From Burkholderiales bacterium (GTDB lineage Bacteria > Pseudomonadota > Gammaproteobacteria > Burkholderiales > Casimicrobiaceae): a DNA stretch of 64,000 bases. Both the position numbers and the translations under genes were made by a program. The stretch lies in the NCBI GenBank assembly GCA_020853025.1, contig JADYZP010000058.1:1-64000 (forward strand). The letters run 5' to 3'. The notes below the pieces were generated by a model that was given only the letters and a program-made list of their open reading frames with translations, was not told where the DNA came from and searched no databases. This document shows, piece by piece, positions 32,583 to 55,446 of this stretch (position 1 is the stretch's first letter; every line of letters begins with the position of its first letter).

Positions 32583-33092
32583 GTGGCCGGCGCGTGCGAA
32601 GGGTTCGAGTGGCCGCGACGCCTCGCTTGGCAGATCGGCATTTACCTCTTGCAGGTACAATCGGCGACCGATATCACGAACACCGAACCGGTGATCAGGA
32701 AGCTCTACGAACTCATTTCGCGCGACGAGGCACGCCACGGCGGCGCCTATCCGCGTTTCATGAAGCGGGTCGTCGAGCGTGGCAGCACCGAGGCCAAGCG
32801 GGCGTTCGCGAAAATCGGCGTGCTGATGGCCAGCACCGCACGCGCAGGCAAGCCGCTGCATCCGACCAACCTGCACGTCAACCGCAGGATGTTTCCGAAC
32901 GATACGGTGCAAAGCCGCGTTCCCGACCCCGCCCGGCTCCAGCACTGGCTCGACGAGCAGATCCGCTTCGACATCGATTGGGAGAAGCGCGTCATCGCGA
33001 TGATCCTCAGGAATCTTTCGCTGCTGTTCGGCGAGACCTTCGATTCGGTTCAGCAGCTCAACCGTTTTCGGAGGTCGCTGGTGCCCGCCTGA
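32583..33092 (+). pseudogene. Acyl-ACP desaturase/ferritin-like remnant, 5' truncated
   Basis: A frame of about 169 codons following the regulator carries LYELISRDEARHGGAY. The DEARH there resembles the second iron-ligand ExxH of the diiron acyl-ACP desaturase family, with a C-terminal half typical in length. The first iron-ligand motif and roughly the first 100-130 residues of the family are missing: the sequence upstream is the regulator's own coding region. There is no good start (GTG 32583 is a placeholder) and no Shine-Dalgarno. It probably is a remnant, or a shortened relative with another role. The family call is tentative. Confidence 0.45.
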
Positions 33093-33104
33093 AGTCGGGT
33101 TTGT

Positions 33105-34073
33105 ATGATGGCGGCCATGTGGACCGCCGTCATCCTCGGTACAGCGGTCGCCGTGCTGCTCGCTGCCTACGGCGCGTGTGCGGCTTTGGCGGTCGCACAC
33201 GGCGCCTCGCCCTGGCCCTTCGTCGTCGGCCTGCCGCTGGCGTACCTCGCATTTCCGCTGCTGTTCACGGCGCTGTGGGTGACGCTTGGATGGTGGCTGC
33301 GTGCACCACCGCCGACTGGCATCACGCTGACCTTGCGCCAGCAAATGCACCTGTTCGTCGGCGAATTCGCGAGTATCGCGTTGTCGGTACCGAAAATGAT
33401 CCTGTATCGAATGCTGATGCGCGATCCGCCGCCGGCACCCGCCGAGCTGCCAGTGCTGCTGCTGCACGGTGTCGGCTGCAACGCCGGCGTCTGGACGGGG
33501 CTGTCCGGCTATCTCGACTCGCGCGGACTGGGTCCCGTCTACGCGCTGTCCTACGGGCCGCCGCTGGCATCAATCGAGCATTTCGCCGATCTGGTTGCGT
33601 CGAAGATCGTGCAGATCCGCACCGCGACCGGCGCGCGGGACGTACTGCTGGTGGCGCACAGCATGGGCGGGCTGGTTGCCCGGGCGTACCTGCGCCGCTA
33701 CGGCGGAAGCCAGGTGCGACGACTGGTCACCATCGGCACGCCGCACCACGGCAGCATGCATGCCTGGCTGATGTTCGGGCAAGCGCTGGCGCAGATGCGT
33801 CCACACAGCGCGTTCCTGGAGCAACTGAATGTGGACAACCAGCGGGCGGCCGGCGTGCCGGTCGTCTCGCTGTGGTCGTGGCACGACTCGATGGTGACCC
33901 CGCAGACCTCGGCCCGGCTCGACTGGGCCGAGAATGTCGTGATCACCGGCGTCGCGCACAACGCGATGCTCAACGACGAGCGTGTCTATGCTCTGGTCGT
34001 GGATGAAATTCGTAAGGCGCGTGCCGAGAACGTCCGACGTGTCGACGCGCCCTGCGCGTCGACGGTCCAGTAG
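33105..34073 (+). CDS. Membrane-anchored alpha/beta hydrolase (lipase-like)
   Basis: The 322-residue protein begins with two hydrophobic helices (residues about 5-30 and 35-65), so it is anchored to the inner membrane. The hydrolase domain follows: the oxyanion segment VLLLHGVGCNAGVW, the nucleophile elbow AHSMGGLVAR with the catalytic serine, TIGTPHHGS, and a late ITGVAHNAML with the catalytic histidine. This is the layout of bacterial triacylglycerol lipases and related esterases. It lies between the cobalamin regulator and the fatty acyl-CoA reductase, matching a lipid role. The ATGs at 33105, 33108 and 33117 are all possible starts. Confidence 0.82.
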   Translation: MMAAMWTAVILGTAVAVLLAAYGACAALAVAHGASPWPFVVGLPLAYLAFPLLFTALWVTLGWWLRAPPPTGITLTLRQQMHLFVGEFASIALSVPKMILYRMLMRDPPPAPAELPVLLLHGVGCNAGVWTGLSGYLDSRGLGPVYALSYGPPLASIEHFADLVASKIVQIRTATGARDVLLVAHSMGGLVARAYLRRYGGSQVRRLVTIGTPHHGSMHAWLMFGQALAQMRPHSAFLEQLNVDNQRAAGVPVVSLWSWHDSMVTPQTSARLDWAENVVITGVAHNAMLNDERVYALVVDEIRKARAENVRRVDAPCASTVQ

Positions 34074-34079
34074 GGGTTC

Positions 34080-36071
34080 TTACCAGTGAATGCCCTGCGT
34101 AAGCTGGGCAAACGCGATCTGCTCGGGGCTGAGTTCCTGCTTGGCCGCAACCTCGCCCTTCTTGCCCTGCGCCGCGGCCGAATCGGGAAACATGTTGAAC
34201 GCGGTATTGAGCATGATCTGAGTCAGCCGCGGCGCCGCCGCATGACTGATCGCGGCGAAAATACCCAGCCGCGTGGCGATGCGCACGGGCTTGTCGACGA
34301 TCGCCTGCACGACCAGGTTCGCGGCCTCCTCCGGTGACAGGGTCGGCACGTTCTCGTACATCTTGGTCGGCGCGATCATCGGCGTGCGCACCAGCGGCAT
34401 GTTGATGGTCGTGAAGTTGATGTTCTTGTCCAGGAACTCGGAGGAGGCGCAGGCGGCGAAGGAGTCGAGTGCCGACTTCGACGCCACGTAGGCCGAGAAG
34501 CGCGGCGCGTTGGACAGCACGCCGATCGACGAAATGTTGATGATGTGGCCGCGCCGCTGCTCGATCATCTTCGGCAGGAAGCCCATGATCAGGCGCAGCG
34601 CGCCGAAATAGTTCAGCTGTATCGTCCGCTCGAAGTCGTGGAAGCGGTCGAAGGAATTGATGACGCCTCGGCGGATCGAGCGGCCGGCATTGTTGACGAG
34701 ATAGTGGCAGGTGCCGTGCTCCTTGAGCACGCGCGCGACCAGCGCGTCGCAGGAGGCGAGGTCGGACACGTCGGCCGTGTACATCCAGCACCGGCCGCCA
34801 GCCGCTTCGATCTCCTTCAGGGTCTCGACCAGCTTTTCCTCGCCGCGTGCGACCAGGATCACGCGGGCACCCGCGGCCGCTAGCGTGATCGCCGTCGCCT
34901 TGCCGATGCCCGACGAGGCGCCGGTGACGACGACCACGCGGTCACGAACCTTGCCGCCCAGGCTGCGATCGATGAAGAGATCGGGGTCGAGGTTGCGCTC
35001 CCAGTAGTCCCACAGCCTGGGCGCGTAGCTTTCGAGTTCGGGCACCGCGATGCCGGAGCCCTTCAGCGCCTTCACCGTCTCGCGATTGTCGTAGCGGGTC
35101 GGCCAGTTGATGAACTGGAACACGTCCTTCGGGATTCCCAGGTCGGTCAGCACCGCGCGGATCATGCGCTTGACCGGAGCGAGCGAGCCCAAGCCGTAGA
35201 GCAGCGGCGCCGGGATGAAACCGAACATCCGCGCATTGAGGCGCATCGTCATCTGCGGTGCGTGGCCGGCCCTGGCGAAAATGTTGAGCACTTCGCCGAT
35301 CCGCTGCGGCGCGGGATCGGTCAGGTGGAAGCACTTGCCGTCAAGGCCCTTCTTGTGCGCCAGGAAATCGAGCGCATCGGCGACGAAGTCGACCGGCACG
35401 ATGTTGATGCGCCCACCCTCGATACCCACCATCGGCATCCACGGCGGCATGAGGTTGCGCAGTCTCTGCAGAACCTTGAAGAAGTAGTAGGGCCCGTCGA
35501 TCTTGTCGATGTAGCCGGTTTTCGAGTCACCGACGACGAAGCCCGGGCGATAGATGCGCAGCGGCCGCTTGCACTCGCGGCGCACGACGGCCTCGGAATC
35601 ATGCTTGGTCTTGAAATACGGATGATCGAGGTCTTCAGCCTCGTCGAACATGTCTTCGCGGAACACCCCGTCGTAGAGGCCGGCCGCCGCGATCGAGCTC
35701 ACGTGGTGGAAGCAGCCGGCGTTAACGGCCTGGGCGAACTGCACGGCGTGGCGCGTACCTTCGACATTGGCGGTCTGCTGCTCTTCGGCGCTGGCCTTGA
35801 GGTCGTAGACCGCCGCGAGGTGAAACAGGTGGTCGACCTTGCCTTTGAGCTTCCTGATGTCGGCATCGGCGACACCGAGGTTCTTGCTGGCCAGGTCGCC
35901 GACGACAGCGATGACCTCCTTTTCGGTTGCACCCCACTCTTCACGCAGCGCGCCGAGCTTCTTGACCGAGCTTTTGCGCACCAGGACGTAGATCGGCCGG
36001 CCTCGTTTGAGCAGCTTGCGGACGAGGAAACGTCCGATGAATCCGGTCGCGCCGGTGACGAAGTAGGCCAT
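34080..36071 (-). CDS. Two-domain fatty acyl-CoA reductase (extended SDR + classical SDR)
   Basis: The 663-residue protein combines two Rossmann domains. Residues 1 to about 365 are an extended SDR/FAR domain: TGATGFIG (6-13) and the YxxxK pair Tyr152/Lys156 in PYFKTKH. Residues about 375-663 are a classical SDR: TGASSGIG (383-390), NNAG, and YVASK with Tyr528/Lys532. A protein of about 660 residues with this arrangement in Marinobacter reduces fatty acyl-CoA to fatty alcohol, and the C-terminal domain resembles Acr1 acyl-CoA reductases. ATG 36071 follows a strong AAGGAGG. Wax ester synthase, acyl-CoA-binding protein and phasins nearby support fatty-alcohol production. Substrate chain length is unknown. 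Confidence 0.8.
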   Translation of the reverse strand: MAYFVTGATGFIGRFLVRKLLKRGRPIYVLVRKSSVKKLGALREEWGATEKEVIAVVGDLASKNLGVADADIRKLKGKVDHLFHLAAVYDLKASAEEQQTANVEGTRHAVQFAQAVNAGCFHHVSSIAAAGLYDGVFREDMFDEAEDLDHPYFKTKHDSEAVVRRECKRPLRIYRPGFVVGDSKTGYIDKIDGPYYFFKVLQRLRNLMPPWMPMVGIEGGRINIVPVDFVADALDFLAHKKGLDGKCFHLTDPAPQRIGEVLNIFARAGHAPQMTMRLNARMFGFIPAPLLYGLGSLAPVKRMIRAVLTDLGIPKDVFQFINWPTRYDNRETVKALKGSGIAVPELESYAPRLWDYWERNLDPDLFIDRSLGGKVRDRVVVVTGASSGIGKATAITLAAAGARVILVARGEEKLVETLKEIEAAGGRCWMYTADVSDLASCDALVARVLKEHGTCHYLVNNAGRSIRRGVINSFDRFHDFERTIQLNYFGALRLIMGFLPKMIEQRRGHIINISSIGVLSNAPRFSAYVASKSALDSFAACASSEFLDKNINFTTINMPLVRTPMIAPTKMYENVPTLSPEEAANLVVQAIVDKPVRIATRLGIFAAISHAAAPRLTQIMLNTAFNMFPDSAAAQGKKGEVAAKQELSPEQIAFAQLTQGIHW

Positions 36072-36333
36072 CGCATCCTCCTTGCATTGTCGACTGGGCG
36101 AAACGGGTCGCACCGCATTTCATGTGCGGAACGTGTCCGCCGTCGTTCTGAATTCTTGCCGCAACGGCGGGCCGCACCGCCGCGAAGCCGATGCGATTGT
36201 ACCCCTGCGTCCCGCGCGTCGACCGCGCGATCCGCGCGCCGTCCCGTTTAGTATGATTCCTCTAGCGCTGCCGTCTAGAATGAACGATGCAGCCGGATGA
36301 CTGCAATGCCGCCACGAATCGAAAGGGGATCCG

Positions 36334-36870
36334 ATGCTCAAGAAAGCGAAAGCCGGAAGGACCGCAAAGGCAGAGACCGGCGGGGCCGGCGATATGTCGC
36401 AGTCGGTGCTCGATTCGTCGCGGCACATCTGGCTCGCGGGATTGGGTGCGTTTTCGCGCGCGCAGGCCGAAGGTACGAAGGTGTTTGAATCGCTGATCAA
36501 GCAGGGCGAGGCCCTGGAGCGCAAAACACGGCAAGTCGCGACAGACACCGCGATCGCGGCGCGCGGTGCCGCCCACGCGAAGGTGAAGGAAGTGAAACAA
36601 GGTGTTGGCGGAACGTGGGACAAGCTGGAGCAGGTCTTCGAGGCGCGCGTCGCGCGCGCATTGTCGAAGCTGGGCGTGCATACGCAAAGCGACGTCGAAA
36701 GGCTCACCGAACGCGTCGACGCGTTGGCCGAGGCGGTGAATCAGCTCATCAAGGCGACCGGGGTCAAGCCGAGGTCTGCGGCGAAGGCGACAACCGCTGC
36801 CGCCAAAGCGGCCAAACCGGCGAAAAAGGTAGCGCGCCGCACGCGTCGCGCAACAGGCAAGGCCGGGTGA
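36334..36870 (+). CDS. Phasin family granule-associated protein
   Basis: A 178-residue protein of the PhaI/PhaF type. Residues about 22-150 form long amphipathic helices (SVLDSSRHIWLAGLGAFSRA and a coiled-coil VERLTERVDALAEAVNQL). The last 30 residues are a lysine/alanine/proline-rich tail (AKPAKKVARRTRRATGK), as in phasins that bind both granules and DNA. It carries an AAGGGG site ahead of ATG 36334. It is divergent from the acyl-CoA reductase and convergent with the acyl-CoA-binding protein, so it may coat wax-ester/TAG as well as PHA granules. Confidence 0.88.
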   Translation: MLKKAKAGRTAKAETGGAGDMSQSVLDSSRHIWLAGLGAFSRAQAEGTKVFESLIKQGEALERKTRQVATDTAIAARGAAHAKVKEVKQGVGGTWDKLEQVFEARVARALSKLGVHTQSDVERLTERVDALAEAVNQLIKATGVKPRSAAKATTAAAKAAKPAKKVARRTRRATGKAG

Positions 36871-36897
36871 ATCCCGGGCTGATGCCTACGCCGGAAG

Positions 36898-36915
36898 GTC
36901 CGCCACCGGGCGGAC
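36898..36915. terminator. Hairpin between convergent phasin and ACBP genes
   Basis: A perfect 7-bp stem GTCCGCC/GGCGGAC with a 4-base loop lies in the 52-base gap between the two convergent genes. No T-run follows on either strand, so termination would be weak or rho-assisted. Confidence 0.35.
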
Positions 36916-36922
36916 ATCATGC

Positions 36923-37201
36923 CTAGTCGCGATTCAGCTTTTCGACCTGCTTGATGTAGTTCGTCATCGCCTCGTTGGAACCCATGCCGCGTAGCTTCGC
37001 CCAGGCGTCGAACTTGGCGCCGCCGACGAAATCGAAGCCGCCGGGCCGGTCTCCGCTTACATCACCGTCAGTGGCCTGCTTGTAGTACGAATACAGTTTA
37101 AGCAGCGTCGCGTTGTCTGGTTTCTTTTTCGTCTTCTTGGCGGCGGCGGCGGCGGCCTTGAACTGGCCCGTGAGGTCGTCTTTTTTCGGTGCAGCGGTCA
37201 T
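36923..37201 (-). CDS. Acyl-CoA-binding protein (ACBP)
   Basis: The 92-residue protein is a full-length ACBP, a four-helix protein that binds long-chain acyl-CoA esters. Key features are LYSYYKQATDGDVSGDRPG and KFDAWAKLRGM, then SNEAMTNYIKQVEKL, closely matching the eukaryotic consensus (the YKQAT and KxDAW motifs contact the acyl-CoA). An N-terminal stretch rich in lysine and alanine precedes it. ATG 37201 follows AAGGAGG. ACBP is uncommon in bacteria. Between a fatty acyl-CoA reductase and a wax ester synthase it probably buffers their shared substrate pool. Confidence 0.93.
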   Translation of the reverse strand: MTAAPKKDDLTGQFKAAAAAAKKTKKKPDNATLLKLYSYYKQATDGDVSGDRPGGFDFVGGAKFDAWAKLRGMGSNEAMTNYIKQVEKLNRD

Positions 37202-37313
37202 GCGATCCTCCTTGAAGGAAATCCGGTTACGCGCGTTTCGTGCTACTTTAGCGCGAACGTAATCCGGCGCGCAACGAAGGCGCGCTCTCGTACCCGCCTC
37301 GTCCCAGTCGATC

Positions 37314-38774
37314 ATGGCCGCGACCCCTCGCCGCGAAAAAATGTCCGCCGTCGACACGGCGTGGCTGCGCATGGACCGGCCGCACAATCTGATGATGATT
37401 TGCGGCGTCCTGCTCTTCCGCAGGCGCGTTTCGCTCACCCGCCTGCGACGGGTGATCGCGCAACGGTTCCTGGTATTCAAGCGCTTCCGGCAGCGAGCGG
37501 TCGAGACCGCCGGAGCCACGTTCTGGCAGAGCGATGCGCACTTCGACATCGAGCGCCATGTCGTTCATACTGCTCTGCCCGGCCGCGCCGGTCACGACGA
37601 GCTGCAGGAACTGGTGTCGCGACTCGCCACGACGCCTCTCGATCCCGCACGGCCCATGTGGCAGTTTCACCTGGTCGACAATTTCGACGGCGGCAGTGCG
37701 CTGATTGCGCGCATTCACCATTCGTATGCCGACGGCATCGCGCTGGTGCGCGTCGTGCTGTCGATGACCGACGCAGGTCCGAATGGTCCGCCTGCGATGC
37801 CCTTCGCGCCGGCGCACCGGCGCGCCGAGCACGACGATGCGCTGTCGCACCTGCTGGCGCCGTTCTCGGGCGTCTTGAATACCGCGCGCAGGATCGGCGC
37901 GACCTTGGTCGAGAAGGGCGTCGAACTGTGGTCGGATCCATCGCGTGCCGTGGCGCTGGCGAGCCAGGGTTCGGCGCTTACCGCCGAGATCGCGAAACTG
38001 GCGTTGATGGCGCAGGATTCCCCGACACGATTCAAGGGCGCGCCCGGCATCGGCAAGCGCGTCGCATGGGCCGACCCACTGCCGCTTGACGAGGTCAAGG
38101 CTGTCGGACACGCGCTCGGCGCCTCGGTCAACGACGTACTGCTGTCGTGTGTCGCCGGCGCGCTGCGCGGTTACCTCGCCGACAAGGGCGACGCGACAGA
38201 CGCAGTGATGTTGCGCGCGCTCATTCCGGTCAATCTGCGTCCGGTCGAGAAGGCCTACCGGCTCGGCAACCAGTTCGGTCTCGTGTTTCTCGACCTGCCG
38301 ATCGGCATCGAAAATCCCGTCGAGCGGCTTTATGCAGTGCGCGCGAACATGAATGCGCTCAAGGGTTCGTATCAGCCGGTGCTGGCGCTGGGCCTGCTCG
38401 CGGCGATGGGCTCGGGCCCGAAAGCGCTGCAGGACGCCCTGCTGCAGGCGCTTGCGCGCAACGCATCGAGCGTGATGACCAATGTGCCGGGACCCCAGGA
38501 GCCGCTCTATCTTGCCGGTGCGCAGATCGAAAGCGTCATCGTCTGGGTGCCGCAATCCGGGGACATCGGCATGGGTGTTTCGATCATTTCATACAATGGC
38601 GCCGTTCAGTTCGGCCTTATCACCGACCGCGCGCTATGCCCCGATCCGGAACGTATCACCGCGCGCTTTCCCGCCGAATTCGAAAAGTTGCTGCTGGTGA
38701 CGCTGATGGCCACATGGCCGCGCGACGGGGAACTCGACCCGGCCGAAGCCGCGGAGGTCGCGCGAGCCAACTGA
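37314..38774 (+). CDS. Wax ester synthase / diacylglycerol acyltransferase (WS/DGAT)
   Basis: The 486-residue acyltransferase esterifies fatty alcohols or diacylglycerol with acyl-CoA. The catalytic HHSYADG (His135, His136, Asp140) is intact. Also present are PLDPARPMWQFHL (108-120), the C-terminal NVPGPQEPLYLAG motif, and IPVNLRPVEKAYRLGNQFG. All are features of the WS/DGAT family, whose members have about 450-490 residues. ATG 37314 has no good Shine-Dalgarno; ATG 37341 is an alternative. It is divergent from the acyl-CoA-binding protein gene. Whether the product is mainly wax ester or triacylglycerol cannot be read from the sequence. Confidence 0.93.
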   Translation: MAATPRREKMSAVDTAWLRMDRPHNLMMICGVLLFRRRVSLTRLRRVIAQRFLVFKRFRQRAVETAGATFWQSDAHFDIERHVVHTALPGRAGHDELQELVSRLATTPLDPARPMWQFHLVDNFDGGSALIARIHHSYADGIALVRVVLSMTDAGPNGPPAMPFAPAHRRAEHDDALSHLLAPFSGVLNTARRIGATLVEKGVELWSDPSRAVALASQGSALTAEIAKLALMAQDSPTRFKGAPGIGKRVAWADPLPLDEVKAVGHALGASVNDVLLSCVAGALRGYLADKGDATDAVMLRALIPVNLRPVEKAYRLGNQFGLVFLDLPIGIENPVERLYAVRANMNALKGSYQPVLALGLLAAMGSGPKALQDALLQALARNASSVMTNVPGPQEPLYLAGAQIESVIVWVPQSGDIGMGVSIISYNGAVQFGLITDRALCPDPERITARFPAEFEKLLLVTLMATWPRDGELDPAEAAEVARAN

Positions 38775-38775
38775 A

Positions 38776-38811
38776 GGAATCCGTTTCTCCGGTGCGAGGC
38801 GCCCGGATTCC
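38776..38811. terminator. Inverted repeat between convergent WS/DGAT and solute-binding protein genes
   Basis: A perfect 8-bp repeat GGAATCCG (38776-38783) and CGGATTCC (38804-38811) with a 20-base spacer fills the 61-base gap between the two convergent genes. There is no T-tract, so this is only a candidate bidirectional terminator. Confidence 0.3.
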
Positions 38812-38835
38812 GCAAGGCGCCGGCACGATCCGCGC

Positions 38836-39822
38836 TTACGGCCACGCCGGATACGTATTCGGCGCCTGGAACGCTTCCTTCAGGTACTGATTGAGTGGAA
38901 CCGTCAGCTCGCGGTTGTTGAACCACTTGGCGTAAATGCGACGGATCTCGCCGGACTGGAACAAATCGACAAGCGCGCGATTGACGATCCTCTCGAACTG
39001 GGGCTCGTTCCTGCGAAACATGATCGCATAGGGCTCGACCGACAGGTACTTGCCGACGACGGCGAAATCGTCCGGCTTGCTCGACTTCGAGATAAGTCCG
39101 TAGAGCAGTACGTCGTCCATCAGGAACGCCACCGCACCACCGTCCGCGACGGTCTTGAACGATTCGCCGTGGTCCTTCGACAGCACGATGTCGACCTTCA
39201 GTATGCGCTCGTCGTTCATTGCTCGAAGGAGCTTCTCGCTTGTCGTGCCCTGGGTCACGACGACACGTTTGCCGCGCAGATCCTCGAGCGAATTCACATT
39301 GGAGGACTTCCTGGCCAGCATCTTGATGCCGGCCACGAACGTCGTGTACGCGAAGGCAACCTGCTTTTGCCGGTCGCGCGTGTTGGTGGTGGACCCGCAT
39401 TCGAGGTCGATCTTGCCGTCGAGCAGCACCGAAATACGGTCGGAGGAGGTGACCGGAACGAATCGGATGTCGAGCCGCGACAGCTTGAGTTCACCCTTGA
39501 TCGCGTCGGCGACACGCAGGCACAGGTCCACCGAATACCCTTGCGGCTGCTTGTTTGCATCGAGGAAGGAGAACGGCACGCTCGACTCCCGCACGCCAAG
39601 CAGGAGGACGCCGGAATCACGGATGCGTCGCAGCGTGTCGATTTGCGCGGCCGGTTTTTGGGCTGCAACAGGTGTACTGGCCGATTTCGCCGGTGCCGCC
39701 CCGACCTGCGCCAGTGCCGGCGCGGTGACAATGGCGATGACGAAGCATGCGGCGGCAATCCCGGGCAAGCGCGCGCGGTCACCTCGCGTTGTCGCGTTCG
39801 AAAAAACGCTGCCCTTGCGCAC
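38836..39822 (-). CDS. Periplasmic amino-acid-type solute-binding protein (orphan)
   Basis: The 328-residue protein has a long signal peptide (cleavage probably after TAPALA, about residue 38) and a family-3 binding domain: GVRESSVPFSFLDANKQPQG, CLRVADAIK, and DLECGSTTNTRDRQK, a segment typical of glutamate/aspartate binders. GTG 39822 starts it, three bases after the TPR gene stop. There is no permease or ATPase next to it, so it either serves a distant transporter or acts as a sensor. Its placement in a lipid island is odd. Confidence 0.82.
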   Translation of the reverse strand: MRKGSVFSNATTRGDRARLPGIAAACFVIAIVTAPALAQVGAAPAKSASTPVAAQKPAAQIDTLRRIRDSGVLLLGVRESSVPFSFLDANKQPQGYSVDLCLRVADAIKGELKLSRLDIRFVPVTSSDRISVLLDGKIDLECGSTTNTRDRQKQVAFAYTTFVAGIKMLARKSSNVNSLEDLRGKRVVVTQGTTSEKLLRAMNDERILKVDIVLSKDHGESFKTVADGGAVAFLMDDVLLYGLISKSSKPDDFAVVGKYLSVEPYAIMFRRNEPQFERIVNRALVDLFQSGEIRRIYAKWFNNRELTVPLNQYLKEAFQAPNTYPAWP

Positions 39823-39825
39823 GGC

Positions 39826-40602
39826 CTATTCGAGCTCCGACTTCGCCAACTCGACATCGAGACGCTCCATGGCGTCGTGCGGTTTCAGCGACGCCGCTTT
39901 TTCGTACAACCGGCTCGCTTCGTCGATCTTGGCGTCACCGTAGAGCAGCAGGAGTCCGTTGCCGTATTCGATGTGCGTGATCGGGGACTCCGGAAACAGC
40001 TTCAACGCCTTCTGGTAGTACTCGACGGCGGACTCCTTTTTCGCGCCGTAGGTCAAGCCGGCGACGATGCCGCCGACCTTGCCGATGACCTCGGCCTGGT
40101 AGGAGCCATAGGCCGTATGCGCGTCCGCATGCCTGGCGTCCAGCTTCATCGCGGCCAACAGCGCCTCCTTGATCTTGCCGCCGAATCCCTGCGCGAGCGC
40201 CTTCGCCACGGAAATTTCCTGCCCGTAGCGCCCGAGCGCGTAGGCGTACAGGTAATGCGCATTGGCGTCCTTCGGAGCTGCGCGCCGCCGTTCATCAGCC
40301 ATGGCCACCGCCTCTTCCAGCAGCGCGAGCTTGGTCTTCTCGGCCTTCTCGAGGTGGCTCGCGTACACGGTCTGTGCCTTCACCGCCGCATTGACGCCGG
40401 CCCTTCCCGCCTCGATTCCCATCTCGACCGCCTGCGCAAATTCGCCGGCATGAAAGTGACGCCAGGCATCGATCACGGGCTTATCCGTGGGAAACGGCTC
40501 GCGGTCGCCCTTGTGCAGGCGTGCCCAGCACTTCTTCAGCGATGCCGCATCGTACGTGTAGGCCTTGTCGGGGTGCGGGAACTTCACCCATTTCTTCGCC
40601 AT
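39826..40602 (-). CDS. TPR-like repeat protein, hypothetical
   Basis: A 258-residue cytoplasmic protein without a signal peptide. It opens MAKKWVKFPHPDKAYTYDAA and is otherwise alpha-helical. Repeated TPR-like helix pairs run through residues about 95-250 (NAHYLYAYALGRYGQEIS, HADAHTAYGSYQAEVIG, SAVEYYQKALKLFPES, EASRLYEKAASLKPHD). It probably is a protein-interaction scaffold. It begins 24 bases after the TetR gene and 3 bases before the binding-protein gene on the minus strand, so these three are likely co-transcribed. Function unknown. Confidence 0.75.
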   Translation of the reverse strand: MAKKWVKFPHPDKAYTYDAASLKKCWARLHKGDREPFPTDKPVIDAWRHFHAGEFAQAVEMGIEAGRAGVNAAVKAQTVYASHLEKAEKTKLALLEEAVAMADERRRAAPKDANAHYLYAYALGRYGQEISVAKALAQGFGGKIKEALLAAMKLDARHADAHTAYGSYQAEVIGKVGGIVAGLTYGAKKESAVEYYQKALKLFPESPITHIEYGNGLLLLYGDAKIDEASRLYEKAASLKPHDAMERLDVELAKSELE

Positions 40603-40626
40603 GCTCTTCCCTTTGCAAATGCTGCG

Positions 40627-41283
40627 TCAGAGATAGTCCTCGCCCAGCCGCTCGATCAGCGCGCGGCCCTCGCCGACGAGGTAGGGCGCGATCAGGGCGA
40701 GCACATGATAGGCGGCATGGTCGAGGTTGGTTTCGCGGCTGCCGCTCTTGGTCGTGCCGTGCATGCCGATGATGCGCTGCCAGGACATCCAGTAGGTCGA
40801 CACCAGCGTCACGTTGGCCGCTAGTGCGCCGATCTCGCGCTCGCCGGCGGCCATCTGCCCGCTGCGCACGAGACTGCGGCACCACTCTAGCACGGTGCGC
40901 TCGCCGCGGCGGAGGAGGTCGGCGAAGCGCAGCGCGAGCTTGCGATTGCGCGAAGTGATCTGGTCGAGATCGCGGTACAGGAACCGATAGTCGTGCATTT
41001 TTTCGAACAGCAAATGCAGCAGAAACCACAGGTCCTCGACGCCGGGCGGCCGGCTGCCGGGCAACTCGAGCAACGGCAGAACGGCGGACTCGTAGGCGGC
41101 ATAGAGCTCACCGATGATGTCGTCCTTGTTGCGGAAATGGTAGTAGAGATTACCCGGACTGATGTTCATCTCGTCGGCGATATCCGCCGTCGTGATATTC
41201 GGCGCACCGAAGCCGTTGAACAGAGCGAGGCCGGTCTCGAGTATGCGCGCGCGCGTGCGGCGAGGCGCCTTAGGTTGCGCCAT
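40627..41283 (-). CDS. TetR/AcrR family transcriptional regulator
   Basis: About 218 residues from ATG 41283, which has GGGAG at 6 bases; ATG 41295 has none. The N-terminal TetR domain reads RARILETGLALFNGFG...TTADIADEMNISPGNLYYHF, a complete helix-turn-helix. The C-terminal ligand domain is not recognisable beyond helices. It lies between the patatin-like lipase and the TPR gene, in the granule region. In other bacteria TetR-type PhaD regulators control PHA genes, so a role here in sensing acyl groups is plausible but unproven. Confidence 0.87.
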   Translation of the reverse strand: MAQPKAPRRTRARILETGLALFNGFGAPNITTADIADEMNISPGNLYYHFRNKDDIIGELYAAYESAVLPLLELPGSRPPGVEDLWFLLHLLFEKMHDYRFLYRDLDQITSRNRKLALRFADLLRRGERTVLEWCRSLVRSGQMAAGEREIGALAANVTLVSTYWMSWQRIIGMHGTTKSGSRETNLDHAAYHVLALIAPYLVGEGRALIERLGEDYL

Positions 41284-41349
41284 TTGGACTCCCATCCATG
41301 GCGCTGTGCCGTGAGGGCATCGGCATCGCGGCCTCGCTCGGGCGCGGAT

Positions 41350-42651
41350 TCAGCGCGCGGACGTCACCGCGCGCTCGAGCTGGTCGAGGGTATGTCGCAA
41401 CTCCCGCTTTGTCTGCCGGACATTCGCGCGCGCGACGTCCGGTCGCAGCGGGCGTGCGTCGGTGAGCGCCATACCGATGACACGATCAGAATCGTTGAGC
41501 CGATCGTGGCGTATCGTAATGCCGTGTCGGCGCAATAGCGGCGCCATCGCGCCGGCGCGGGTGATCAGGTTCTGACGCGTCTTGGCAAATGCGATCGCAC
41601 ACAACCGCCTGCGCTGCGAATAGCTGAAAATGTTCGCGAAGAACATGTCGGCATCCTCACGGTCCGGCTCGAACAGCAGGATGCTGGCGTCGGGGTACTG
41701 GCGTGCGTACTTTTCCATGCCTACCTTCATCCGCGAGTGGATGATCGCGCGGAAGGTCTGGCCGAGCACCAGCGGCAGTCCGCCTTGGCTCAGACGGTCT
41801 TTGCGCCGATGCCCGCGCCGCAATGCCGAACTGGCGTCAAAGGGAACCAGCGGATTCACGCAAAGAAGCAAACGCACACCCTCGTCGAGAGCGACTGACG
41901 CATGCAGCGTCTTGTTGAGCGCACCGTCGACGTAGAAATCGCCGTCGATCGCGACCGGGGGGAAGAGCCCCGGCAATGCAGACGAGGCTTCGATCGCTCG
42001 CGAAATCGGAACATGCGCCTGGTGATGCGGCCCGAAGGTGACCGGAGCACCCGTGTCGAGATTGGTCGCCACCAGGAACAGCTTGCGCGGCAACTTGCGA
42101 AAATCGTTGGTGCGTCCCGGCGCCGCAAACAGCCTGGCGAGAAAATCGTCGATCGCGCCATTGTCGAATACGCCGGTCGGGATCGCCTTGGCCAGCGTCG
42201 CGAAGGACTCGATCACGCCGCGATGAAACGGATCGCGCAGGTATTGCATCGTGGCCCGCATGACGAGCGCCGGAAGCGCAACCAGGCAACGGCCGAACTC
42301 GGCGAACGCGGGCCTCAGAAAAATCTCCGGCTTCATCGCGGCGTCTGCACCGTCTTCGATGAACAGTCGGTACATCTGCGCCGGCGAGATGCCGTTGGCG
42401 AGCGCCGCGGCTACGAAGCCACCGGAAGAAACACCGACGTAGACGTCGAGCGCATTGAGATCGAGACCGTCGAGCGAATCGGCGAGCGCCAGCAGTGCGC
42501 CGACTTCGTAGATGCCGCCCAACGGGCCACCGCCGGCGAGCGCCAGACCGATTTCCGACGGCCTATGCACAGCCCGCCGGCCGCCCGGCAACCGCGTGCG
42601 CCCGCGCTTGCGGGTTCTCGTTCCGCGACCGGAGGCAGTTTCGTCCGGCAT
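41350..42651 (-). CDS. Patatin-like phospholipase/lipase
   Basis: About 433 residues from ATG 42651 (an AGGAGA is 3-4 bases upstream). The patatin fold is shown by the glycine-rich oxyanion loop LALAGGGPLGGIYEVGALLAL, the nucleophile GVSSGG with Ser75, and the catalytic aspartate in YVDGAL. An arginine-rich N-terminus of about 30 residues precedes it. No signal peptide or membrane segment is seen. Members hydrolyse phospholipids or act on granules: some PHA depolymerases and lipid-droplet lipases are patatin-like. With two phasins and WS/DGAT close by, a role in mobilising stored lipid is plausible. Confidence 0.85.
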   Translation of the reverse strand: MPDETASGRGTRTRKRGRTRLPGGRRAVHRPSEIGLALAGGGPLGGIYEVGALLALADSLDGLDLNALDVYVGVSSGGFVAAALANGISPAQMYRLFIEDGADAAMKPEIFLRPAFAEFGRCLVALPALVMRATMQYLRDPFHRGVIESFATLAKAIPTGVFDNGAIDDFLARLFAAPGRTNDFRKLPRKLFLVATNLDTGAPVTFGPHHQAHVPISRAIEASSALPGLFPPVAIDGDFYVDGALNKTLHASVALDEGVRLLLCVNPLVPFDASSALRRGHRRKDRLSQGGLPLVLGQTFRAIIHSRMKVGMEKYARQYPDASILLFEPDREDADMFFANIFSYSQRRRLCAIAFAKTRQNLITRAGAMAPLLRRHGITIRHDRLNDSDRVIGMALTDARPLRPDVARANVRQTKRELRHTLDQLERAVTSAR

Positions 42652-42711
42652 GTCTCTCCTCATCGTTTGCAGGACCACCGGATGCTCGCTGATGCGGCGG
42701 GAGGTTCCCTT

Positions 42712-42741
42712 GCGAAGGGGGCGCCCAAGCGTCCCCTTCGC
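42712..42741. terminator. Strong hairpin downstream of the second phasin
   Basis: A perfect 9-bp stem GCGAAGGGG/CCCCTTCGC with a 12-base loop lies between the end of the phasin gene (42761) and the start of the patatin gene (42651), both on the minus strand. No T-run follows, so it may be a partial terminator or an mRNA-processing or stability element separating the highly expressed phasin from the lipase. Confidence 0.4.
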
Positions 42742-42760
42742 GTGCAATGGTAGCGGAGAA

Positions 42761-43249
42761 CTACTTCTTCGTGGCGGCCTTCACCTTGCGAGCACCGCGC
42801 TTGACGGGTTTCGCGCCGCGCGCTTTCGTGCCGCGCTTGGCCTGACCCACACGCTTCTTCGCTGCCGTTTTCGCCTTGGTTGCCGGCACCGGCTTCAGCA
42901 TCGCCGGCAAGGTCACCTTCGGCAACGACTTGGGAAGATTGGTCTGGACCAGCGTGACCGCGGTGTCGGCAGCCTGCCTGACGGTGGAAGACACCGTGCT
43001 GCGCGCCTGCTTCCACAGCGAATTGGCCTTCGTGAACGAATCCTCGAGCGTGTGGCCGACCATGCGGATCGTACGCGATTCGACGGCAGTTCCTTCCTTG
43101 ACCAGCGTGCGGAACATGCTGCTGCCTTCGGCTTGCGCCCATTCGCGCGAGACCACCGCCGCGCCCAGACTGGCGAGCCATACCTGTCGCGACGCATTGA
43201 ACACCGCGTCGCCGATCGGTGTGCTGCGGGTTTGCATCGAGTTAAGCAT
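42761..43249 (-). CDS. Second phasin family protein with basic AKP-rich tail
   Basis: About 162 residues from ATG 43249, which follows AGGAG. The phasin core includes DAVFNASRQVWLASLGAAVV and a helical central part. The C-terminal 50 residues are a lysine/alanine/arginine/proline-rich tail (KAKTAAKKRVGQAKRGTKAR and onward) of the PhaF/histone H1-like type. Such phasins coat granules and attach them to DNA for segregation. Together with the phasin at 36334 it gives the island two granule coats. Confidence 0.85.
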   Translation of the reverse strand: MLNSMQTRSTPIGDAVFNASRQVWLASLGAAVVSREWAQAEGSSMFRTLVKEGTAVESRTIRMVGHTLEDSFTKANSLWKQARSTVSSTVRQAADTAVTLVQTNLPKSLPKVTLPAMLKPVPATKAKTAAKKRVGQAKRGTKARGAKPVKRGARKVKAATKK

Positions 43250-43428
43250 TATCGTTTCTCCTGTACGTGGCGCGCGGACGATTGCCGTGCCTTCACCGTT
43301 CAATTTACGCATATCGCCTAGAGCATTCACACTAAAGGGCGCGGTGCTTCAGCCGCCGGAGGCCAGGACGTTCGCGAGGCACGTCGCAAGCGCGCTTTCA
43401 CCCTATGGCGACGCACTCGACAATACAA

Positions 43429-43482
43429 TCTAGCAGGTCGAACGACCGGCGGCGGCACGGCGCAATGCGATGACCTGCTAGA
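43429..43482. repeat. 11-bp perfect inverted repeat between divergent granule genes
   Basis: TCTAGCAGGTC (43429-43439) and GACCTGCTAGA (43472-43482) form a perfect inverted repeat with a 32-base spacer. It lies in the 268-base gap between the divergent second phasin and the FFLEELY-motif gene, about 35 bases upstream of the latter. A TACAAT box (43424-43429) overlaps the left arm. It may be a regulator-binding dyad (two half-sites three helical turns apart) or an RNA hairpin in one leader. Confidence 0.6.
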
Positions 43483-43517
43483 CTCGTTGCTCCGAACGTT
43501 GCCCCGTCAATTCGCCG

Positions 43518-44276
43518 ATGGCAGATCAGGATCCGGCCCCGAGCGCGCGCAGCGCGCTGGTGCGTGAACTCCAGCGTGTGCAACGTCTGCACGAGGAGCG
43601 CAAGGTCAATCCGATACTTGTCGGCGCACTCGACCGCCTTGCGAACTGGCAGGCGCGGCGGCTGCGCATGACCTATGCGGATCTGGCGGCCGATCCGCGC
43701 TTCACCGCGGCTATAGAGTTCTTCCAGAACGATCTCTACGGCAGCGCGGATTTCAGCCGCCGCGATGCCGATCTGGCGCGTGTCGTTCCGGTGATGGTGA
43801 AGATGCTGCCCGAAAGCGTCATCCGGACTACCGCATCCGCGATGGAGCTCAACGGGTTGTCGCAGGAACTCGATCGCGTCCTGCTCGCGCGCTTGCCACG
43901 GGCCGACGGCTATTTCACCGTGGCCGAGTACTGCAAGGCGTATCGGCGGGCGGGAAACTTTCCGTTGCGCGGCCGTCAGATCAGGCTGATTGGGGAGATC
44001 GGGCAGGCACTCGATCGCTTTGTCGGGAAGCCGCTGGTGCGCACTGCGCTGGCGATGATGCGGCAGCCCGCGCGGCTGGCGGGGATGTCGGCGTTGCAGG
44101 ACTTCCTCGAGCGCGGCTTCGCCGCGTTCCGCGACATGGGCGGCGCCGAAGCGTTCCTGCGTACGATCGACGAGCGCGAAACGCAGATCATGGAGGCGAT
44201 CATCGGCGGCGCCATCGATCCCTTTCCCGATCCGCTGATGTTCCGACTGTCGCAGCCGGCGACCGAGCGGTTCTGA
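43518..44276 (+). CDS. FFLEELY-motif family protein
   Basis: A 252-residue cytoplasmic protein without signal or membrane segments. The segment RFTAAIEFFQNDLYGSADFS followed by RRDADLARVVPVM resembles the FFLEELY-motif family known from proteobacteria, whose function is not established. The rest is helical, and ends with DPFPDPLMFRLSQPATERF. Its position between a phasin and the PHA-granule-associated protein gene suggests a link with storage granules, but that is inference. Confidence 0.7.
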   Translation: MADQDPAPSARSALVRELQRVQRLHEERKVNPILVGALDRLANWQARRLRMTYADLAADPRFTAAIEFFQNDLYGSADFSRRDADLARVVPVMVKMLPESVIRTTASAMELNGLSQELDRVLLARLPRADGYFTVAEYCKAYRRAGNFPLRGRQIRLIGEIGQALDRFVGKPLVRTALAMMRQPARLAGMSALQDFLERGFAAFRDMGGAEAFLRTIDERETQIMEAIIGGAIDPFPDPLMFRLSQPATERF

Positions 44277-44328: not shown

Positions 44329-44610
44329 TCAGGCCTCGCCCAGTAGTCGGTCGAGCTGGGCGGTGATTTCTCTTTCGAGCGCCGGCTTCAGCGGCGTCAG
44401 CAGCCAGCCGAGACTGACGTCGAGCGCGATTCTGTCGCGGCCGACGAGCATGCGACCGGCAATGCCGGGGCGTTCGAAATCAACGTGGTCTCCGTCCCAT
44501 TCGTAGGCGAGTGCAAAGCGCTTGTTCAGGTCCTTGGCGATTTTCTCGGCAACCGACTTCGCCTTCCTGTGCGAAAGCACGTGCTTGCGCGCGATCGAGA
44601 TGGTGGCCAT
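44329..44610 (-). CDS. Polyhydroxyalkanoic acid system family protein (PHA_gran_rgn)
   Basis: A 93-residue protein that fits the PHA-granule-region family: MATISIARKHVLSHRKAKSV, then AEKIAKDLNKRFALAYEWDG and RIALDVSLGWLLTPLKPALE. The fold is probably a small alpha/beta domain. An AGGAGG site precedes the ATG. These proteins occur next to PHA granule genes, but the mechanism is unknown. It is convergent with the FFLEELY gene. Confidence 0.85.
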   Translation of the reverse strand: MATISIARKHVLSHRKAKSVAEKIAKDLNKRFALAYEWDGDHVDFERPGIAGRMLVGRDRIALDVSLGWLLTPLKPALEREITAQLDRLLGEA

Positions 44611-45007: not shown

Positions 45008-45811
45008 ATGGACAGGATGGACGCCGGGGTGCTGCGGCAACAGGACGCGCCGATTGCGTGCGCGACCAAGGCTCGCCTGCTCGACGCTGCCGAAGCGCTG
45101 TTCATGGAACATGGCTTCGAGGCGACCAGCCTGCGGGTGATCACGGCGGCAGCGGATGCCAATCTTGCTGCAGCCAATTATCACTTCGGCAGCAAGGAAG
45201 AGCTGTTCCAGGCGGTCCTGACGCGGCGGCTGGATCCGATGAATCGGGAGCGTGTGCAACTACTCGACAGGTTCGAGCGTGAGTCGGCACCGGAACCGCT
45301 GCGTTGCGAACGAATCCTTTCGGCGCTGTTCATCCCGGCGCTGCGGCTGGCGCGTGATCGCGAGCGCGGCGGCACCAATTTCCTGCGCCTGCTCGGTCGT
45401 GCGTACGCCGATCCGGCGCCGTTCATCCGTCGCTTCCTGTCGGATCAGTACGCGCTGATGATCGCTCGCTTCAAGACCGCGTTCGGGCGTGCGTTGCCGC
45501 AACTGCCGCGCAAGGAATTGTCGTGGCGGCTGCACTTCATTATGGGCGCGCTGTCGTACACGTTGGCAGGCACCGACGCGCTGAAAATAATCGCCGAGCT
45601 GAATCCGCTCGATACGAACAATGACGAGATCCTGTTGCGCCGTCTCGCCCCCTTTCTGTTGGCCGGATTGACCGCGCCGCTGCCCGACCTCTACGACGTT
45701 GCGCGAGACCTCGAGCTGGAAAGCGATGCGCACAGTCCTGCTGACCGGCATGACGCAAGACGCCACGCCGAACCTGGTGCGGCGGCGTCGAAAAAGGAGT
45801 ACCGACCATGA
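45008..45811 (+). CDS. TetR family regulator of the fatty-acid operon
   Basis: About 267 residues from ATG 45008, preceded by GGAAGGAGG; an earlier in-frame start at 44945 has no such site. The DNA-binding domain is ATKARLLDAAEALFMEHGF and then TSLRVITAAADANLAAANYHF. The C-terminal domain (residues about 80-230) is helical, with LRLLGRAYADP, and should bind an effector, probably an acyl-CoA, since the gene is the first in the fadE operon and its stop overlaps the fadE start (ATGA). It most likely represses its own operon. Confidence 0.9.
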   Translation: MDRMDAGVLRQQDAPIACATKARLLDAAEALFMEHGFEATSLRVITAAADANLAAANYHFGSKEELFQAVLTRRLDPMNRERVQLLDRFERESAPEPLRCERILSALFIPALRLARDRERGGTNFLRLLGRAYADPAPFIRRFLSDQYALMIARFKTAFGRALPQLPRKELSWRLHFIMGALSYTLAGTDALKIIAELNPLDTNNDEILLRRLAPFLLAGLTAPLPDLYDVARDLELESDAHSPADRHDARRHAEPGAAASKKEYRP

Positions 45812-48324: not shown

Positions 48325-48328
48325 CGCG

Positions 48329-49633
48329 ATGCGGCACGAACCCTCCGCGATGAACGATCCGGTATACATCGTCGACGGCTGCCGGACGCCATTCCTCAAG
48401 GCGCGCAACAAGCCGGGGCCATTTGCCGCATCCGATCTCGCCGCCGACGCCGGCCGTGCGCTGCTCATCCGTCAGCGCTTCGCGTCAACGGATTTCGACG
48501 AAGTGATCCTGGGCTGCGCCGCGCCGTCCGCCGACGAAGTCAACATCGGCCGCGTGGCCGCGCTGCGAATGGGCTGCGGCCAGAAGGTGCCCGCCTGGAC
48601 CGTGATGCGCAACTGCGCATCGGGCATGCAGTCGATTGATTCCGCGGTCAACAATATCCGCGCCGGTCGCTCCGAGCTGGTGCTGGCCGGCGGCGTCGAT
48701 GCGCTGTCGCGGGCGCCGCTCCTCTTCTCGGACGCGATGGTGTCCTGGCTGTCGCAATGGTACGCGGCGAAGAGCGCCGGGCAGCGTGCGGCGCTGCTCG
48801 CGAAGTTTCGGCCGGGGTTTTTCGCACCGGTGATTTCGTTGATGAAGGGCCTCACCGATCCGATCTGTGGGCTGCTGATGGGACAGACGGCGGAGAACCT
48901 GGCGTACCGCTTCGGCATCACGCGGCAGGAGATGGATGACTTCGCGGCGCGCAGCCATGCGCGGGTGCTCGCGGGGCAGGCGGCGGGGCACTACGCGGAC
49001 GAGGTGGTGGCATTGTTCGACCGCCGCGGCACACTCCACGCCGCCGACGATGGCGTACGCGCCGATTCGACAGCCGAGAACCTGGCCAAGCTGCGGCCCT
49101 TTTTCGACAAGAAGTACGGCAACATCACGGCCGGCAACAGCTCGCAGATCACCGACGGCGGCGCATGGGTGATCGTCGCGTCGCAGCGCGCGGTCGATGA
49201 ACATCGGCTGACGCCGATCGGCCGTATCGTCGATTCGCAATGGGCGGGTCTCGATCCGGCGCAGATGGGACTGGGCCCCGTCTACGCGGCCACTCCGATC
49301 CTGCAACGGCACGGTCTAGCACTGAACGACCTGGACGCCTGGGAAATCAACGAGGCCTTCGCCGCTCAGGTCCTGGCCTGCGAACGCGCTTGGGCCGACG
49401 ACGAGTTCTGCCGCACCGAACTCGGGCTGCCGGCGGCGCTGGGAACGATCGATCAGGCAAAGCTCAACGTGGACGGCGGTGCGATCGCGCTCGGCCATCC
49501 GGTGGGCGCGTCCGGCACGCGGATCGTGCTGCACGTATTGAACACGCTGCGCCGCACCGGCGGCAGGCTCGGCATGGCGGCGATCTGCGTCGGCGGCGGC
49601 CTGGGCGGCGCGATGCTCGTCGAGCGCGTCTAG
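48329..49633 (+). CDS. fadI: 3-ketoacyl-CoA thiolase (FadI-like)
   Basis: About 434 residues. This thiolase releases acetyl-CoA in the last step of beta-oxidation. The nucleophile Cys96 is in MRNCASGMQS, the catalytic His is in GHPVGASGTR, and the second Cys is in CVGGGLGGAML. The NEAFAAQ motif is also present. An insertion around residues 130-200 (LSQWYAAKSAGQRAALLAKF) is typical of FadI-type long-chain thiolases. ATG 48329 is used; ATG 48350 is also possible, and neither has a strong Shine-Dalgarno. It is followed 23 bases later by its hydratase/dehydrogenase partner. Confidence 0.92.
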   Translation: MRHEPSAMNDPVYIVDGCRTPFLKARNKPGPFAASDLAADAGRALLIRQRFASTDFDEVILGCAAPSADEVNIGRVAALRMGCGQKVPAWTVMRNCASGMQSIDSAVNNIRAGRSELVLAGGVDALSRAPLLFSDAMVSWLSQWYAAKSAGQRAALLAKFRPGFFAPVISLMKGLTDPICGLLMGQTAENLAYRFGITRQEMDDFAARSHARVLAGQAAGHYADEVVALFDRRGTLHAADDGVRADSTAENLAKLRPFFDKKYGNITAGNSSQITDGGAWVIVASQRAVDEHRLTPIGRIVDSQWAGLDPAQMGLGPVYAATPILQRHGLALNDLDAWEINEAFAAQVLACERAWADDEFCRTELGLPAALGTIDQAKLNVDGGAIALGHPVGASGTRIVLHVLNTLRRTGGRLGMAAICVGGGLGGAMLVERV

Positions 49634-49656
49634 CGCAACCGACCGGAGAAGCGATC

Positions 49657-53426: not shown

Positions 53427-53436
53427 CCGCATCGAA

Positions 53437-55395: not shown

Positions 55396-55446
55396 CGGGA
55401 AAGGGCGGGGCGCGTCGCTCTGCCCGAACGAAGGATCCGTACAGGG

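What the first reader, a model, noticed from the sequence alone, without database searches (positions are those of the whole stretch)
34080..38774. Compact neutral-lipid cluster: FAR, phasin, ACBP and WS/DGAT
In under 5 kb lie a two-domain fatty acyl-CoA reductase, a granule phasin, a eukaryote-type acyl-CoA-binding protein and a wax ester synthase. Together they could make, deliver substrate to, and coat wax-ester or TAG bodies. A phasin and an ACBP built around wax synthesis is unusual and not a textbook arrangement.
Basis: partly seen in the sequence, partly recalled or inferred. Interest (0 to 1): 0.78.

Follow-up and report, generated by a model that had tools for sequence, protein, structure and literature searches.

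The report
Conserved wax-droplet gene neighbourhood
A group of bacterial genes that probably makes, feeds, coats and breaks down wax or fat droplets is shared by many distant bacteria, and its coat protein, usually labelled as a bioplastic-granule protein, follows the wax genes rather than the bioplastic genes.

Summary
The four genes are real and correctly placed: two-domain fatty acyl-CoA reductase (FAR), PF05597 phasin, ACBP and WS/DGAT. The host is an unnamed betaproteobacterium. The arrangement is no one-genome accident. It is the core of a larger conserved neighbourhood with a TetR regulator, a patatin-like lipase, a TPR protein, an FFLEELY protein and a PF09650 protein, found in betaproteobacteria (also Accumulibacter, Sulfuritalea, Chitinimonas) and Lysobacterales. 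In 150 genomes of the order, PF05597 occurs in exactly the 20 genomes with FAR or WS/DGAT, and in 0 of the 81 that have PHA synthase but neither. I therefore read this phasin as a coat of wax-ester or TAG bodies. Its Lys/Ala/Pro-rich tail, shared by about half of its relatives, suggests, untested, that it could tie droplets to DNA. The window's WS/DGAT falls in a subfamily apart from the canonical enzymes. The gene association is partly in print: Galvan et al. 2023 (PMC10351704) reported ACBP, FAR-like, PHA-system and phasin genes beside Burkholderiales-related WS/DGAT. I found the phasin's exclusive link to wax genes and the full gene set in none of my searches. No activity, lipid or localisation was tested, and Marinobacter wax loci lack the phasin.

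The parts
33105..34073 (+). alpha/beta hydrolase (lipase/esterase-like), next to FAR
   Evidence: PF00561/PF01674. An orthologue at >=38% identity lies in 6 of 80 FAR loci, all six betaproteobacterial by title; more at 30-38%. Membership is weaker than for the other parts.
34080..36071 (-). two-domain fatty acyl-CoA reductase (FAR), Maqu_2507 type
   Evidence: PF07993 + PF00106, NF005539 990.8 bits. 62-63% identical to the Marinobacter homologues L152, L156, L158, L164, L168. The glycine motifs and a YxxxK motif in each domain are invariant in alignment A2 of 11 sequences.
36072..36333 (.). shared upstream region of the divergent FAR and phasin genes
   Evidence: Short blocks conserved with L089 and L090. 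The sigma-70 scan found no site here and 1 in the whole 33000-43600 stretch, against 1.4 by chance.
36334..36870 (+). PF05597 phasin 1, with a Lys/Ala/Pro-rich C-terminal tail (net charge +13 over 43 residues)
36923..37201 (-). acyl-CoA-binding protein (ACBP), 92 aa
   Evidence: PF00887 91.7 bits. The alignment to solved ACBPs (2fdq, 2cb8) keeps YKQAT.GD...RPG..DF.G.AK.DAW.
37202..37340 (.). shared upstream region of the divergent ACBP and WS/DGAT genes
   Evidence: GCGCTAAAGTAGCACGA block shared by window, L089 and L090, not by L069
37314..38774 (+). WS/DGAT acyltransferase (start 37314 or 37341), HHSYADG motif, separate subfamily
   Evidence: TIGR02946 417.4 bits, PF03007, PF06974. Tree of 76 sequences.
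39826..40602 (-). TPR protein, conserved in the neighbourhood
   Evidence: weak TPR matches; orthologue in 31 of 80 FAR loci, 0 of 20 WS control loci
40627..41283 (-). TetR regulator (PF13972)
   Evidence: orthologue in 47 of 80 FAR loci, 0 of 20 WS control loci
41350..42570 (-). patatin-like lipase
   Evidence: PF01734; orthologue in 34 of 80 FAR loci, 0 of 20 WS control loci
42761..43249 (-). divergent second PF05597 phasin, Lys-rich tail
   Evidence: PF05597 45.5 bits, over the cut-off; TIGR01837 35.2, below its cut-off of 94.7. 9 of 80 FAR loci hold two phasins in the flank; orthologous to it at >=38% only in L090.
43518..44276 (+). FFLEELY motif protein, function unknown
   Evidence: NF047641 235.3 bits; 25 of 80 FAR loci, 0 of 20 WS control loci
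44329..44610 (-). PF09650 'polyhydroxyalkanoic acid system' protein
   Evidence: PF09650 86.8 bits; 9 of 80 FAR loci, 0 of 20 WS control loci

Best explanation
The locus is a neutral-lipid body module. FAR reduces long-chain acyl-CoA to fatty alcohol. ACBP holds and hands over acyl-CoA. WS/DGAT esterifies the alcohol (or diacylglycerol) with acyl-CoA to wax ester (or TAG). The PF05597 phasins coat the resulting bodies. The patatin-like and alpha/beta hydrolases release acyl groups again. The TetR protein probably times the switch in response to an acyl-CoA-type signal. Shown here: gene identities, intact catalytic motifs, conserved linkage, and co-occurrence of the phasin with the wax genes rather than with PHA synthase. 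Inferred: enzyme activities, wax against TAG, droplet coating, and the roles of the hydrolases, TetR, TPR and FFLEELY.
For: (1) Families and motifs. (2) Order sample of 150: FAR 19, WS/DGAT 19, PF05597 20 over cut-off, ACBP 39. PF05597 equals 'FAR or WS/DGAT' in 20 of 20. PhaC is present in 101, but 0 of the 81 PhaC genomes without FAR/WS have PF05597. (3) In five families (f3, f4, f6, f11, f49) the members visible in the tables include both kinds of genome, and the characters change together in all five. (4) Class sample of 248: 9 of 12 PF05597 genomes have WS/DGAT, 10 of 12 have WS/DGAT or full-length FAR, and 7 of 12 have no PhaC match over the cut-off. G358 has FAR and phasin side by side with no WS/DGAT and no PhaC over the cut-off. 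(5) 80 FAR loci: phasin 48, ACBP 55, WS/DGAT 18; TetR 47, patatin 34, TPR 31, against 0 of 20 WS control loci for each. (6) Of the 62 loci with no WS/DGAT nearby, 50 were searched genome-wide and 48 have one elsewhere.
Against: Of 12 oceanospirillal-type FAR loci 1 has a phasin nearby, and of 4 Marinicella loci 0, though Marinobacter is a known wax maker. So the phasin is not needed near the wax genes everywhere; whether those genomes carry one elsewhere was not searched. Two class-sample genomes of one family (G161, G313) carry PF05597 without WS/DGAT, FAR or PhaC. Six of 15 WS/DGAT genomes in the class sample lack PF05597 over its cut-off. All 20 phasin genomes of the order also have PhaC, so a PHA role there is not excluded gene by gene. 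PhaF of Pseudomonas (in PF05597 by recall) does coat PHA, and the review PMC5658603 places PhaP1 of Ralstonia eutropha, a PHA phasin of a Burkholderiales species, in PF05597 (legend seen; by recall it is PF09361, not checked). PF05597 also matched 2 of 14 control genomes, one over the cut-off. Around 20 WS/DGAT genes that lie apart from FAR there is no phasin or ACBP. Fisher tests ignore phylogeny. No operon: the genes face different ways.
Confidence: 0.77

Rival explanations
1. The phasin and the PF09650 protein serve PHA granules, and lie beside the wax genes only because storage genes cluster.
For: All 20 PF05597 genomes of the order have PhaC. The families are named for PHA. PhaF is a PHA phasin in Pseudomonas (PMC5658603, PMC3574117, passages), and the review puts a Ralstonia PHA phasin in PF05597.
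Against: 0 of 81 PhaC genomes without FAR/WS have PF05597. 7 of 12 class-sample PF05597 genomes have no PhaC over the cut-off. No listed PhaC lies within 100 kb of a PF05597 phasin in the order sample (read from the tables; the PhaC list was cut). By the same cut lists PF09361 phasins lie within 10 kb of a PhaC in at least 7 of the 20 genomes.
Confidence: 0.13
2. The locus mainly makes TAG or other esters rather than wax; FAR supplies alcohols for another use (signal, envelope lipid).
For: WS/DGAT enzymes are bifunctional as a family (recalled). G083 has the WS-ACBP-phasin part with no FAR found. G160 and G358 have FAR without PF03007.
Against: 18 of 19 FAR genomes in the order have WS/DGAT, and 48 of 50 FAR genomes with no WS/DGAT near FAR have one elsewhere.
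Confidence: 0.25
3. The neighbourhood is an inherited chromosomal order with no joint function.
For: Gene directions are mixed, so it is no operon. The nearest relatives share the order: WS-ACBP-phasin-FAR in L089 (5.6 kb contig), nearly the whole block in L090.
Against: Order and partners are reshuffled but the gene set is kept. ACBP lies within 20 bases of, or overlapping, the WS/DGAT frame in 6 of 6 betaproteobacterial loci where it was found, and within 1 kb of FAR in 30 of 32 Lysobacterales loci. FAR/WS and phasin come and go together in five families.
Confidence: 0.07

Closest known systems
Betaproteobacterial WS/DGAT scaffolds of Galvan et al. 2023 (PMC10351704; section 23 and passages seen)
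   Same: ACBP next to WS/DGAT, a Maqu_2507-like SDR (58.8 and 59.2% to Maqu_2507) and a 'polyhydroxyalkanoic acid system' protein on two scaffolds, a phasin on another; close to Burkholderiales.
   Different: That paper calls the phasin involved in PHA metabolism and reports no exclusive link to wax genes in what I saw. Its main text holds none of the words patatin, TetR, tetratricopeptide, FFLEE or PF05597. Its figures and supplements were not seen.
Marinobacter FAR (Maqu_2507) and WS/DGAT wax pathway
   Same: FAR 62-63% identical to Marinobacter homologues; same two-step chemistry (recalled, and PMC10351704).
   Different: No phasin, ACBP, TetR or patatin found beside FAR in five of five Marinobacter loci.
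Pseudomonas PhaF phasin, PHA granules
   Same: Same phasin family (PF05597 by recall); a basic, histone-like C-terminal domain with AAKP-like repeats that binds DNA and shares out granules (PMC5658603, passages).
   Different: PhaF belongs to a PHA synthase system; here the linked genes are FAR, WS/DGAT and ACBP.
Rhodococcus MLDS lipid-droplet protein (PMC5504291, abstract)
   Same: Possible work-alike: a droplet protein that also binds DNA.
   Different: No membership claimed or tested; other phylum.

Membership tests
WS/DGAT acyltransferases | TIGR02946/PF03007 over cut-off and HHxxxDG motif | tested here: met
   417.4 against 309.95 bits; HHSYADG; motif in 76 of 76 sequences
WS/DGAT acyltransferases | makes wax ester or TAG | not testable with these tools
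   no assay
Canonical WS/DGAT subfamily | falls in the canonical clade | tested here: not met
   separate clade in a midpoint-rooted FastTree, support values not examined; best solved match 6chj at E 3e-35 over residues 43-448
Maqu_2507-type FAR | two-domain architecture with cofactor and YxxxK motifs in both | tested here: met
Maqu_2507-type FAR | reduces acyl-CoA to alcohol | not testable with these tools
   no assay
ACBP | PF00887 and the conserved acyl-CoA-binding stretch | tested here: met
   which residues bind acyl-CoA is recalled, their conservation read
PF05597 phasin | profile match over cut-off | tested here: met
   139.6 against 28.8 bits
PHA granule system | PHA synthase in the locus | tested here: not met
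   the three PhaC matches of this genome lie on contigs C42, C4 and C40, the window on C58
PHA granule system | phasin distribution follows PHA synthase | tested here: not met
   0 of 81 PhaC genomes without FAR/WS have PF05597
DNA-tethering phasin (PhaF-like) | basic Ala/Pro-rich tail | tested here: met
   window phasin: net +13 over 43 residues. Of 88 phasin frames (some from overlapping stretches of one genome) 53 have tails of 25 or more residues; 46 of the 53 have net charge +8 or more and 42 of 53 are at least 70% K/R/A/P/T, against 15% and 0.8% of 2946 background C-termini
DNA-tethering phasin (PhaF-like) | binds DNA and positions granules | not testable with these tools
   no assay

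The most novel reading that the evidence does not exclude
PF05597 in Betaproteobacteria and Lysobacterales is primarily a wax-ester/TAG body phasin, misnamed after PHA. Through its histone-like tail it ties neutral-lipid bodies to the nucleoid, a counterpart of MLDS in Rhodococcus and of PhaF for PHA. FFLEELY, TPR and PF09650 proteins would be further, unrecognised droplet components under the same TetR regulator.
Probability: 0.35. Interest if true: 0.8.

Novelty: new variant of a known kind. Interest (0 to 1): 0.62.

Why it matters
PF05597 is annotated as a PHA granule protein. If in these lineages it marks wax/TAG bodies, the name misleads inferences about bioplastic storage, and the family becomes a marker for neutral-lipid storage in organisms such as Accumulibacter and Lysobacter relatives. 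The locus also names testable droplet-protein candidates (FFLEELY, TPR, PF09650, patatin) and a candidate regulator for proteobacterial lipid bodies. How such bodies are coated, and whether they are shared at division through DNA, becomes directly testable.

Tried and rejected
Rejected: 'single-genome accident'; a PHA-only role for the phasin; the idea that FAR loci without a nearby WS/DGAT lack the enzyme (48 of 50 have it; the two misses are L106 and L108, both Competibacter-type). The periplasmic binding protein 38836-39822 inside the block is not a conserved part (1 of 80 loci).

Led nowhere: promoter and terminator scan, at or below shuffle levels; a shared operator for the TetR, only short conserved blocks seen; a solved relative of the phasin, none below E 0.6; papers on bacterial ACBP evolution, the ten listed of 359 were off topic; structure models of the FFLEELY protein and of the phasin, machine busy each time.

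Caveats on counts: PF05597 sets use matches over the family's cut-off; left out are 1 weaker match in the order sample (G139) and 8 weaker genomes in the class sample (20 of 248 at E <= 0.001). In 'strong' PhaC in the class sample means best E below 1e-30 (51 genomes); 62 of 248 are over the family's cut-off, and the seven phasin genomes without strong PhaC are over neither. FAR searches scored only the best 8 (order) or 4 (class) candidates of each genome, so a FAR could be missed. The genome sets were typed from the tool tables; my PF09361 set came out as 99 where the tool counts 98 (97 over cut-off), so one search's PF09361 tables are off by one and are not used. Family members without any match in the tables are hidden, so the five-family contrast covers visible members only. 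One search covered 50 of the 62 FAR loci without a nearby WS/DGAT; 12, mostly on short contigs, were dropped by me. Background frames include spurious reading frames. One search requires 38% identity and 45% coverage, so it counts fewer phasins (41) and WS/DGATs (15) than the HMMs (48 and 18). Group labels were given by me from record titles. In the WS tree the canonical set was my choice.
Full report
Observation. FAR has the N-terminal NAD_binding_4 and C-terminal short-chain dehydrogenase domains of the enzyme studied in Marinobacter (Maqu_2507), and its catalytic motifs are invariant in an 11-sequence alignment. WS/DGAT keeps HHSYADG. ACBP aligns to solved ACBPs over nearly its whole length. 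The phasin is a PF05597 protein with a basic, Ala/Pro-rich tail. The host genome (G000, 3.65 Mb in 71 contigs) is unnamed; its closest named FAR relatives are Burkholderiales/Betaproteobacteria MAGs at 77-79% (records nearest to the window may be left out there). L089 and L090 keep the same WS-ACBP-phasin-FAR order.

The neighbourhood is larger. tblastn of the window's genes on a choice of the fetched loci shows one block, ACBP-WS-TPR-TetR-patatin-phasin-FAR-hydrolase, in L027, Sulfuritalea (L121), Rhodocyclales (L132) and Accumulibacter (L165). In Lysobacterales the set is TetR-ACBP-FAR-phasin-patatin, often with TPR and sometimes WS (L111, L114; similar in L103, titled a Chromatiales MAG). 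Among 80 FAR loci, orthologues lie in the flank for TetR 47, patatin 34, TPR 31, FFLEELY 25 and PF09650 9. In 20 control loci, stretches around WS/DGAT genes that lie apart from FAR in FAR-carrying genomes, all five counts are 0. By my HMMs the phasin is in 48 of 80, ACBP in 55 and WS/DGAT in 18. Many contigs are short: of 47 loci of 21 kb or more the counts are 31, 33 and 10. By group the phasin lies within 2 kb of FAR in 12 of 13 betaproteobacterial, 22 of 32 Lysobacterales and 10 of 14 other MAG loci, but in 1 of 12 oceanospirillal-type, 0 of 5 Competibacter-type and 0 of 4 Marinicella loci.

The phasin follows the wax genes. In 150 genomes of the order, FAR is found in 19, WS/DGAT in 19 and PF05597 over its cut-off in 20. 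The 20 are exactly the genomes with FAR or WS/DGAT; one has FAR only (G052, 84% complete), one WS/DGAT only (G083). PhaC is in 101 and the other phasin family PF09361 in 97 over cut-off. All 20 also have PhaC, but none of the 81 other PhaC genomes has PF05597. In five families both states occur among the visible members and the two characters switch together in each; in f6 the contrast lies within one genus label (g8). ACBP is broader: 39 of 150, and 19 of the 20.

Beyond the order. In 248 genomes of the class, 12 have PF05597 over cut-off. Nine have WS/DGAT, ten WS/DGAT or full-length FAR, and five a PhaC. Without the members of the order the link to WS/FAR stays (8 of 10, p 1e-9) and the link to PhaC is not significant (3 of 10, p 0.42). 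Against: G161 and G313 have the phasin with none of the three, and their phasins lack the basic tail; six of 15 WS/DGAT genomes have no PF05597 over cut-off; in the tool's control set PF05597 matched 2 of 14 genomes, one over the cut-off.

WS/DGAT. In a tree of 76 sequences the window's enzyme lies in a clade apart from the canonical WS/DGATs, with the Lysobacterales, Marinicella, Competibacter, Saccharospirillum and one Marinobacter enzyme (midpoint root, supports not examined). The canonical set was chosen by me from strong PF03007 matches, so the tree shows separation, not frequency. FAR genomes with no WS/DGAT near FAR still have one in 48 of 50 cases. Around 20 of these WS/DGAT genes no phasin or ACBP lies in the fetched 13.5-19.5 kb, so there the link of WS/DGAT to the rest is by genome, not by place.

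Tail. Of 88 phasin frames, 53 have a tail of at least 25 residues, 46 of these with net charge +8 or more. This recalls the histone-like, AAKP-repeat domain of PhaF, which binds DNA and shares out PHA granules (PMC5658603, passages; PMC3574117, passages), and the droplet-to-DNA link by MLDS in Rhodococcus (PMC5504291, abstract). It is a lead, not a test.

Literature. Galvan et al. 2023 (PMC10351704; section 23 and passages) report ACBP beside WS/DGAT, Maqu_2507-like reductases, a PHA-system protein and a phasin in betaproteobacterial scaffolds, and call the phasin involved in PHA metabolism. Searches for phasin with wax ester, lipid bodies, triacylglycerol, PF05597, Marinobacter/Alcanivorax, and patatin/TetR (of the hits of 54 and 73 only the first 15 were listed) showed no title or abstract start that assigns PF05597 to wax bodies; only open-licence papers are held. 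The Zoogloea genome paper PMC5648520 (passages) reports a phasin and PHA genes without a wax/TAG acyltransferase; the phasin's family is not given there. The phasin review PMC5658603 holds neither 'wax' nor 'triacylglycerol'; a legend of it places PhaP1 of Ralstonia eutropha in PF05597, which, if right, is a PHA phasin of this family in a Burkholderiales species and counts against an exclusive link.

Verdict. A real, conserved, partly published neutral-lipid locus. The new points are its fuller gene set, the link of PF05597 with wax genes rather than PHA synthase in this order, and the separate WS/DGAT subfamily.

Noticed in passing
window 45008-59255: A co-directed fatty-acid uptake and beta-oxidation run: TetR (PF17939), FadE-type dehydrogenase, thiolase, FadJ-type, acyl-CoA ligase, 4HBT thioesterase, FadL-type porin, second 3HCDH/ECH protein, thiolase. 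It lies next to the wax locus and may feed it acyl-CoA.
   Followed up: partly
window 32583-33092: Short ORF with weak FA_desaturase_2/AurF similarity (21.9 bits, just under the cut-off of 22.7) between a MerR-B12 regulator and the hydrolase; also next to the hydrolase in L090.
   Followed up: partly
L082 (G313), L083 (G161): PF05597 phasins in genomes without FAR, WS/DGAT or PhaC; their tails are neutral or slightly acidic rather than basic.
   Followed up: partly
L077 (G358:C30): FAR and phasin side by side in a 98%-complete genome with no PF03007 and no PhaC over the cut-off: what takes the fatty alcohol there is unknown.
   Followed up: no
L170, L174, L175, L182, L187: WS/DGAT lies in very long stop-free frames (684-1020 codons); a fused N-terminal domain is possible, or chance openness at high GC; not examined.
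   Followed up: no
G000:C4:69157-69384: A second ACBP-domain match in the host genome, in a 581-codon open frame.
   Followed up: no
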